Positions 9,506 through 13,320 of a stretch of DNA of 37,183 nucleotides are shown in pieces. How positions within the stretch are numbered: position 1 is the stretch's first letter; every line of letters begins with the position of its first letter. The stretch lies in the NCBI GenBank assembly GCA_903832035.1, contig CAILAD010000020.1, positions 1-37,183 of the forward strand, written 5' to 3'. The notes under the pieces were generated by a model. That model worked only from the letters and a program-made list of their open reading frames with translations. It searched no databases and was not told where the DNA came from. Made by a program: the position numbers and the translations under genes. Source of the DNA: an uncultured bacterium. GTDB taxonomy: Bacteria; Patescibacteriota; Saccharimonadia; CAILAD01; BJGX01.

Positions 9506-9535
9506 AAAATACCCCCAAAAAATGGGGGTATTTTG
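9506..9535 (-). terminator. Rho-independent terminator of rnpB
   Basis: CAAAATACCCCC-attttt-GGGGGTATTTTG hairpin just downstream of the rnpB 3' end. Confidence 0.8.
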
Positions 9536-9537
9536 TA

Positions 9538-9934
9538 AGTTAGCTATAAGCCGAATTTTGTTCATCTCGTAAGAGACTTGGTAATCATCTATCTCGTCTG
9601 GACAAAGTCCAGGGCGTCGTGTAAAACACAATCGTGCGATATACCCATAAAAAAGCGAGAAACTTCATCTATAAATAGATAGGGCCCATAATCTTGCAGC
9701 CAACAGGGTTTACCACCGCATATATGTCACCATACAGCGCTGTGAGCTTTTACCTCACTCTTTTCACCCTTACCCCTCACCATTACAATCAATAAATTGA
9801 TCAAAATGGTGAGGGGCGGTATTGTCTCTGCGGCACTTTCCCGAGGGTCACCCCTGGTTGCCGTTAGCAACTGTTGTACTCTGTGCTGTTCGGACTTTCC
9901 TCTCTGGTTAGACCAGAGCGATTACCCGCTAACT
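9538..9934 (-). ncRNA. rnpB: RNase P RNA (bacterial)
   Basis: Minus strand reads ...CCAGAGAGGAAAGTCCGAACAGCACAG...AAAGTGCCGCAGAGACAATACC...GGGTAAGGGTGAAAAGAGTGAGGTAAAAGCTCACAGCG...; the 5' AGTTAGC pairs with the 3' GCTAACT (P1). Confidence 0.95.
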
Positions 9935-9967
9935 ACTGATTATTATACCTGAAAAGTGTTAATTTGT

Positions 9968-11777: not shown

Positions 11778-11853
11778 TGGTCAGGGTGACAGGACTTGAA
11801 CCTGCGACCTCACGGCCCCCAGCCGTACGCGCTACCAACTGCGCCACACCCTG
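11778..11853 (-). tRNA. tRNA-Pro (GGG), CCA encoded
   Basis: Cloverleaf CAGGGTG...ACGG-CTGGGGG-CCGT...GGTTCAAGTCC...CACCCTGACCA on the minus strand. Confidence 0.95.
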
Positions 11854-11952: not shown

Positions 11953-12495
11953 GTGCAGAAAATACCTAAATCAGCCCAACTACTAGCCGTGATAGCCAAG
12001 AGAGACCTTGTGCGTCACGGCAATATTATTAAAGATCAAGCTTTGCTGGAGATGTTTTCTGATGCCAGAACCACAACCCCCTCCAGGAGAATTGCTGATA
12101 CAGCTTCACTTCTAGCTAAACAGGGCTTTTTAAGTGTTGGTATCATAGATAGCCAGAAGGTCTACACCATAACTAAAAAAGGCCGAGAGAAAGTTAATCG
12201 GGCTGAGGCTATGAAAAGTGTTATTACGTCAGACCGCTGGGATGGTAGATACTACTTAGTCACCTTCGATATCCCAGAGAATAAAAAGGTAGTCAGAAAT
12301 CAAATCATTATCGACCTTAAGAGAGCCGGCTTTATAAACTACAGCAAGGGCATATGGTTGTCACCCTATAACCCTATAGGCTACATTGAATCTGTTCGAA
12401 AGAGATATGATCTAAAGAAGAATATAAAACTTATTGTCGCCAGCCATCTAGAAGATGAAGCAAAAATAAAAAGACACTTTAAATTAGTGTCTTAG
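11953..12495 (+). CDS. PaaX-like / Cas2-fold protein with N-terminal winged-helix-like region
   Basis: C-terminal WDGRYYLVTFDIPENKKVVRNQIIIDLKRAGFINYSKGIWLSPYN resembles the PaaX/Cas2-like ferredoxin fold. N-terminal two thirds are HTH-like. GTG start. Confidence 0.7.
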   Translation: MQKIPKSAQLLAVIAKRDLVRHGNIIKDQALLEMFSDARTTTPSRRIADTASLLAKQGFLSVGIIDSQKVYTITKKGREKVNRAEAMKSVITSDRWDGRYYLVTFDIPENKKVVRNQIIIDLKRAGFINYSKGIWLSPYNPIGYIESVRKRYDLKKNIKLIVASHLEDEAKIKRHFKLVS

Positions 12496-12506
12496 GTTAA
12501 GATATC

Positions 12507-12668
12507 AAAAAAGTCCGCTGTATCGAGAGTCATAAATAACCCTTCCCGCCAAAAGCTAGGTGGGTGCTCGCAGTCACCTGGATAGACCAGGCACAATCTA
12601 AAGCTCCCGGGAGTTATGTTTAATCAGAAAAAGTTATTAGACTTTAAAATTCGAATACAGCAGACTCA
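12507..12668 (-). ncRNA. Stand-alone structured small RNA, class unassigned (6S-like topology is a hypothesis)
   Basis: TATAAT on the minus strand at 12680-12675. 5' GTCTGCTGTATTCGA pairs with 3' TCGATACAGCGGAC, then T6. Internal helices ATAAC/GTTAT, CCCG/CGGG and CCTGG/CCAGG. No ORF in the interval. Confidence 0.7.
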
Positions 12669-12675
12669 ATCTACA

Positions 12676-13320
12676 TTATAGCATTATTTGGTGACCCAAT
12701 ATAAAGCTGGCAATAGATGAAACTGCCGAGGATATGAATGGTGACAAGAAACTGAAGGCAATAAAAATAAAGGCAAATACCAATAGCAGTCCGTACCGCT
12801 CCATCTGATCCATGACATCCCTAACCGAACCTGGAACTACCGCATAGAGGACCCGCGAGCCATCGAGTGGAGGAAAAGGTATCATGTTGAAAATAAAAAA
12901 GGCTAAGTTTATAAGCATAAACTCGAGCAAAAACTTCTCGTAAACCCCACTAATTGGTGCCAATCTTAAATACAGACCCACAAAAGTAGCCATTATTAGA
13001 TTACTAAATGGGCCTGCAACCGCCACCAACGCGGCTCCCCATCTGCCATATCTAACAGCATAGGGGTTGAAAGGTACCGGCTTAGCCGCACCAAAGACTA
13101 CTGGTGACCCAAAGAATATTAAAGCGATTGGCATAACTAGGGTTGTTAATGGATCGATATGGGCCGCAGGGTTTAAGGTAAGCCTGCCTTCTTGTTTGGC
13201 GGTAACGTCACCAAGCAGATGACCGGCCCAAGCATGACTAAACTCATGAATCGTCAGCGCAATCACTACAATTACAATATATAGAGCTATTCCAATTACT
13301 GTATTATCCATATAATGCAT
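12676..13320 (-). CDS. M50 family site-2-protease-like zinc metalloprotease
   Basis: ALTIHEFSHAWAGHLLGD (HExxH-like HEFSH), MIPFPPLDGSRVL. Confidence 0.93.
   Translation of the reverse strand: MHYMDNTVIGIALYIVIVVIALTIHEFSHAWAGHLLGDVTAKQEGRLTLNPAAHIDPLTTLVMPIALIFFGSPVVFGAAKPVPFNPYAVRYGRWGAALVAVAGPFSNLIMATFVGLYLRLAPISGVYEKFLLEFMLINLAFFIFNMIPFPPLDGSRVLYAVVPGSVRDVMDQMERYGLLLVFAFIFIAFSFLSPFISSAVSSIASFILGHQIML

What the first reader, a model, noticed from the sequence alone, without database searches (positions are those of the whole stretch)
12507..12680. Stand-alone ~160-nt structured RNA whose -10 box overlaps the upstream gene's stop codon
Seen in sequence: the ORF-free interval has a perfect TATAAT (12680-12675) overlapping the TAA of the M50 protease gene (12678-12676). 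From the predicted start (~12668), a 14-bp terminal helix with one bulge (GTCTGCTGTATTCGA / TCGATACAGCGGAC) closes the whole element, followed at once by T6. One pair is G-U on the minus strand but would be C-A on the plus strand, which supports minus-strand transcription. Inside are ATAAC/GTTAT plus CCCG/CGGG, a CCTGG/CCAGG hairpin, and a large AU-rich asymmetric loop. Size, closed rod shape and own promoter recall 6S RNA, but I recognise no class-specific sequence, so it may be a new family.
Basis: partly seen in the sequence, partly recalled or inferred. Interest (0 to 1): 0.75.

Follow-up and report, generated by a model that had tools for sequence, protein, structure and literature searches.

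The report
6S RNA in a Saccharibacteria genome
The element is a 6S RNA gene, the known small RNA that imitates an open promoter and holds back RNA polymerase; this one is in a tiny host-dependent bacterium, and close copies occur across its group, where the standard Rfam model mostly misses them.

Summary
In detail: on the minus strand at about 12669-12507 there is a rod-shaped RNA gene with a TATAAT box overlapping the stop codon of the upstream M50 peptidase gene. It is not a new family. It matches Rfam 6S RNA (RF00013) over its full length, just above the gathering score (47.1 against 46.4 bits). Covariance models built from its relatives find it in 235 of 295 genomes of the class and 155 of 380 sampled across the phylum; RF00013 itself reached its cut-off in 4 of those 380. 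Covariation is strong: score 0.632, against 0.217 for shuffles. In an independent test, 80 loci fetched only for the M50 protein gave 68 matches, all on the M50 strand, 64 within 200 nt downstream. Likely mechanism: it binds primary-sigma RNA polymerase as an open-promoter mimic and is released by pRNA synthesis that opens helix P2. A 3' hairpin competing with P2 is conserved. The genome has one recognisable complete sigma factor, so I infer a general throttle on transcription, not sigma switching. Expression, polymerase binding and pRNA are untested.

The parts
12508..12669 (-). 6S RNA gene (SsrS-type), about 162 nt; phylum-specific model R2 places it at 12505-12671
   Evidence: RF00013 47.1 bits, full model 1-187; R2 113.1 bits, the only match in the window
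12675..12680 (-). -10 box TATAAT overlapping the M50 stop codon, with TG one base upstream (extended -10)
   Evidence: sequence; -10-like boxes enriched at this place in 53 loci
12651..12667 (-). 5' arm of terminal helix P1
   Evidence: fold; P1 pairs covary, 84-90% of cells paired
12513..12528 (-). 3' arm of terminal helix P1, followed by T6 at 12512-12507
   Evidence: fold, covariation
12623..12637 (-). 5' strand of helix P2 (AUAACUUUUUCUGAU), predicted pRNA template; predicted start opposite U12623
   Evidence: homology to the E. coli CCGA-U44 position through the RF00013 alignment; inferred
12536..12550 (-). 3' strand of helix P2 (GGCGGGAAGGGUUAU)
   Evidence: fold; P2 pairs covary (helices 5 and 6)
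12609..12622 (-). 5' side of the central bubble; distal AUAACUC (12617-12611) can pair with GGGUUAU (12542-12536), a possible bubble-collapse helix
   Evidence: duplex test across 55 loci suggestive, not significant for this copy; forms in a relative when the template is blocked (L020)
12603..12608 (-). GGGAGC, near-invariant 5' side of the internal (apical) arm
   Evidence: near-invariant GGGA in alignments
12577..12591 (-). apical hairpin CCUGG-UCUAU-CCAGG
   Evidence: fold; helices 10-11 covary, 93-96% of cells paired
12558..12566 (-). CACCCACCU, near-invariant 3' side of internal arm and central bubble
   Evidence: invariant columns in A1 and RF00013 consensus
12545..12560 (-). 3'-bubble hairpin that competes with P2; imperfect in this copy, well formed in most relatives
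   Evidence: 47 of 55 loci against 13.6 in shuffles
12471..12493 (-). intrinsic terminator AAGACACT...AGTGTCTT followed by a T-rich run
   Evidence: scan; terminators follow the RNA in 12 of 20 relatives, 1.1 expected
12676..13320 (-). M50 metallopeptidase gene directly upstream, conserved neighbour
   Evidence: Pfam PF02163; synteny

Best explanation
This is the 6S RNA gene of a Saccharibacteria (CPR, Patescibacteria) genome, transcribed from its own promoter at the end of the M50 gene. [quoted passage not shown] When NTPs return, polymerase uses the 5' strand of the bubble and of P2 as a template, probably starting opposite U12623 (5'-AUCAGAAAAAGUUA...). The pRNA opens P2, the freed 3' strand refolds, and the RNA is released. 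Shown here: membership in the 6S family, conserved structure, promoter and terminator signals, single copy, synteny. Inferred from the family: polymerase binding, pRNA synthesis, release. Inferred from gene content: with only one recognised complete sigma factor it acts as a general throttle and cannot redirect polymerase to another sigma.
For: RF00013 match over the full model above the gathering score, no other family near. Models R1 and R2 find one copy per genome (two in one genome) in 235 of 295 class and 155 of 380 phylum genomes. R1, trained only on Saccharibacteria, finds all 24 fetched RF00013 loci of other lineages at the same positions, three of them weakly. Covariation score 0.632 against 0.217 for shuffles and about 0.1 for slid controls; 88.4% of cells paired. 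68 of 80 loci chosen only by the M50 protein carry the RNA, all on the same strand, median 52 nt downstream. Promoter and terminator enrichment. A 3' hairpin competing with P2 in 47 of 55, the refolding element described for E. coli 6S (PMC8876501). One complete sigma factor.
Against: The Rfam score of this copy is only 0.7 bits over the cut-off. No expression, polymerase-binding or pRNA data exist here. The 3' hairpin is imperfect in this copy and the bubble-collapse pairing is not significant for it (29 of 100 shuffles as good). The predicted pRNA is A/U-rich and its 14-nt hybrid is weak (-15.1 kcal/mol; -28.5 and -20.3 for the E. coli and B. subtilis pRNA sequences, which I supplied from memory), so release could differ in detail. 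The alignment used for pair counts was fitted to a model, which favours its structure.
Confidence: 0.92

Rival explanations
1. A structured 3' untranslated region or processing product of the M50 peptidase mRNA, with no polymerase role.
For: It lies directly after the M50 stop codon, on the same strand, in most Saccharibacteria.
Against: A -10 box precedes it in most loci. In 25 of 40 weak or newly found loci and 9 of 24 RF00013 loci of other lineages no M50 gene was detected directly upstream, yet the RNA is there. The structure is the 6S structure.
Confidence: 0.03
2. A 6S-like RNA that binds core polymerase without sigma, as Ms1 RNA does in actinobacteria.
For: 6S and Ms1 share the rod shape; Ms1 is described as structurally related to 6S but binding core polymerase (PMC9130861 abstract).
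Against: The element matches the RF00013 model itself over its full length, and no Ms1 model was listed for it even at E up to 1.
Confidence: 0.04
3. A divergent signal recognition particle RNA or tmRNA.
For: Neither SRP RNA model matches the genome, so a diverged SRP RNA remains unplaced.
Against: tmRNA is found elsewhere in the genome at 125.6 bits. A permissive Rfam scan of the element gives 6S and two chance matches, no SRP.
Confidence: 0.01

Closest known systems
6S RNA / SsrS (Rfam RF00013), E. coli type
   Same: Full-length model match; P1, P2, central bubble and internal arm; a 3'-bubble hairpin that competes with P2, as described for E. coli (PMC8876501)
   Different: Shorter (about 162 nt), A/U-rich P2 and predicted pRNA; different genomic neighbours (M50 upstream, tRNA-Pro and RNase P RNA often downstream)
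6S-1 RNA of Bacillus subtilis and 6S RNA of Aquifex aeolicus
   Same: Some CPR copies can form a bubble-collapse helix between the distal 5' bubble and the 3' strand of P2, the element reported for these RNAs (PMC8876501)
   Different: Most CPR copies also carry the P2-competing 3' hairpin, so the two release elements appear combined; the functional effect is unknown
Ms1 RNA of actinobacteria
   Same: Rod-shaped RNA associated with RNA polymerase
   Different: Ms1 binds core polymerase (PMC9130861); no Ms1 match to this element was found

Membership tests
6S RNA (RF00013) | Match to the curated covariance model above the gathering score | tested here: met
   47.1 bits against 46.4, positions 1-187 of 187
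6S RNA (RF00013) | Rod of about 160-200 nt: closing stem, central bubble, internal arm | tested here: met
   fold z -4.58; the helices on both sides of the bubble covary across 54 copies
6S RNA (RF00013) | Usually one copy per genome, own transcription unit | tested here: met
   one match in this genome; one per genome in listed relatives except G345 with two; promoter and terminator signals
6S RNA (RF00013) | P2 opens and a 3' hairpin and/or bubble-collapse helix forms on pRNA synthesis | tested here: inconclusive
   hairpin conserved in 47 of 55 loci but imperfect in this copy; collapse helix in 17 of 55 at 5%; refolding only simulated
6S RNA (RF00013) | Binds RNA polymerase holoenzyme with the primary sigma factor | not testable with these tools
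   needs co-purification or binding assay; the genome does encode a primary sigma factor
6S RNA (RF00013) | Template for pRNA synthesis | not testable with these tools
   needs in vitro transcription or small-RNA sequencing; start site only predicted
Ms1 RNA | Match to a described Ms1 family model | tested here: inconclusive
   permissive Rfam scan listed no Ms1 match for the element; I did not check which Ms1 sequences Rfam 15 covers
Bacterial SRP RNA / tmRNA | Match to the Rfam models at this place | tested here: not met
   no match at E up to 1 here; tmRNA is at G000:C28:3288-3680

The most novel reading that the evidence does not exclude
In host-dependent CPR bacteria with a single sigma factor, 6S RNA may be the main global on-off control of transcription: polymerase is parked on 6S when NTPs run out away from the host and is freed by pRNA synthesis when NTPs return on host contact. 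The conserved U5 template and A-rich pRNA could tune this to the ATP supply.
Probability: 0.25. Interest if true: 0.7.

Novelty: new member of a known kind. Interest (0 to 1): 0.42.

Why it matters
6S RNA is a known global regulator, but I found no paper in the held library that reports it in CPR bacteria, and RF00013 passes its cut-off in very few of these genomes (4 of 380; 1 of 20 named loci). The models built here find it in most Saccharibacteria and in many other lineages of the phylum. That makes two questions testable: what 6S RNA does in a cell with one sigma factor, and whether it helps episymbionts pause and restart growth with host contact. It also points to an annotation gap in reduced genomes.

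Tried and rejected
New RNA family: rejected by the RF00013 match and the relatives. SRP RNA and tmRNA: rejected at this place. M50 3' untranslated region: the RNA is also found where M50 is not the neighbour. A -35 box: none found at normal spacing. T6 as the only terminator: the T-run is not conserved in relatives, and a better terminator lies downstream. Bubble-collapse helix as a general feature: suggestive only (17 of 55 at 5%). Weak hit L012 (13.8 bits) looks like chance. Wehner et al. 2014 on 6S distribution was not held, so prior mention of CPR there could not be excluded.

Full report
Observation. On the minus strand, TATAAT (12680-12675) overlaps the TAA stop (12678-12676) of an M50 peptidase ORF. 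A 14-pair terminal helix with one bulge and one U-G pair closes an RNA of about 160 nt, followed by T6. The fold energy is -55.5 kcal/mol with z -4.58; the plus strand is weaker, z -3.54.

Identity. A scan of the whole window against Rfam gives RF00013, 6S RNA, at 12508-12669 on the minus strand, 47.1 bits against a gathering score of 46.4, over the full model. A permissive scan lists only two chance matches besides. It is the only 6S match in the 632-kb, 96% complete genome. The motifs GGGAGC and CACCCACCU align with the RF00013 consensus.

Relatives. RF00013 rings in 11 of 61 related genomes at E up to 1, five of them over the cut-off. Nine full-length copies were aligned and made into model R1, which found 124 of 295 class genomes. 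RF00013 over 380 genomes of the phylum gave 27 matches, 4 over the cut-off. R1 found all 24 of those fetched loci from other lineages at the same positions, although three scored weakly. Model R2, from 54 copies, found 235 of 295 class genomes and 155 of 380 phylum genomes, one match each in the listed rows except one genome with two. In the window R2 gives 113.1 bits and no second match. Of 20 named loci, one reached the RF00013 cut-off, while R2 matched 19 of the same 20 at E up to 1. So Rfam-based annotation misses most of these RNAs.

Structure evidence. On the 54-copy alignment 88.4% of cells pair, 503 cells have changes on both sides (160.6 in shuffles), and the covariation score is 0.632 against 0.217 for shuffles and 0.08-0.11 for slid structures. 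The alignment was fitted to R1, which leans towards its structure; R1 itself came from an unconstrained MAFFT alignment with an RNAalifold structure.

Independent test by gene order. tblastn shows M50 directly upstream in nearly all class loci. Eighty loci were then fetched from named genomes by the M50 protein alone; most are labelled Candidatus Saccharibacteria. R2 matched 68 of them at E up to 1, all on the M50 strand; 64 begin within 200 nt of the end of the M50 match, median 52 nt. A few of these 80 loci are the same genomes that trained R2 (L136 is one), so the test is independent in how loci were chosen, not in every sequence. In other lineages the pairing loosens: M50 is directly upstream in 15 of 24 RF00013 loci and 15 of 40 weak or newly found loci.

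Transcription signals. 42 of 53 loci have a -10-like box with at least 5 of 6 matches just before the RNA, against a mean of 13.5 and a maximum of 22 in shuffles; 25 have the TGn extension. No -35 is visible in the window. An intrinsic terminator lies at 12493-12471, and 12 of 20 relatives have one in the same place against 1.1 expected. The 3' end may be set by T6 or by processing from that terminator; this is undecided.

Mechanism. 6S RNAs bind the holoenzyme with the main sigma factor as open-promoter mimics and are released by pRNA synthesis that opens P2 (PMC8876501). In E. coli the freed 3' strand forms an extended hairpin; in B. subtilis and A. aeolicus a bubble-collapse helix is inferred instead. 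In the CPR set, a hairpin starting at CCU after CACCCA, using the 3' strand of P2, passes a fixed score in 47 of 55 loci against 13.6 in shuffles, maximum 22. The collapse helix is suggestive: 17 of 55 at the 5% level, mean -6.6 against -4.6 kcal/mol. When the predicted template is blocked in simulated folding, L020 forms both elements, while the window copy forms only a short collapse pairing. By homology the pRNA of this copy would start opposite U12623 and read AUCAGAAAAAGUUA; its hybrid is weak, -15.1 kcal/mol. All of this paragraph beyond the conservation counts is inference.

Cell context. One protein with sigma-70 region 2 is found, a 369-aa primary sigma. A second region-4 match is a 356-aa protein in which no region 2 was found. 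With one complete sigma factor, sigma switching is not available, so a general brake on transcription is the simplest role. The genome is about 4% incomplete, so a further sigma factor could be missing.

Known or new. Eight literature searches found no paper that reports 6S RNA in CPR bacteria; the main survey of 6S distribution was not held. The element is therefore a new member of a known family, with its broad and mostly unannotated distribution as the real result.

Noticed in passing
window 9531-9936 (-), 11781-11853 (-), 12508-12669 (-): 6S RNA, a tRNA-Pro(GGG) gene and RNase P RNA lie in order on one strand within about 3 kb; in many Saccharibacteria loci tRNA-Pro and RNase P RNA also follow the 6S gene.
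   Followed up: partly
window 11953-12495 (+): Convergent gene for a PaaX_M (Cas2-like domain) protein whose last codons overlap the 6S terminator; it neighbours the 6S gene in most of its family.
   Followed up: partly
G000 (whole genome): Neither the small nor the large bacterial SRP RNA model matches the genome, although controls ring; either in an assembly gap or too diverged.
   Followed up: partly
L069:1426-2496 (+): 356-aa protein with sigma-70 region 4 but no region 2 found, directly after a topoisomerase-like ORF; not a complete sigma factor.
   Followed up: partly
L010, L011, L042 (family f17 and kin): The 5' strand of the bubble can form its own hairpin (AUGAUUA...UAAUCAU) that overlaps the pRNA template, a possible lineage-specific third conformer.
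   Followed up: no
G345:C1:6213-6355 and G345:C16:2397-2535: One phylum genome has two 6S-like matches, one beside M50 and one not: possible paralogues as in B. subtilis, or contamination.
   Followed up: no
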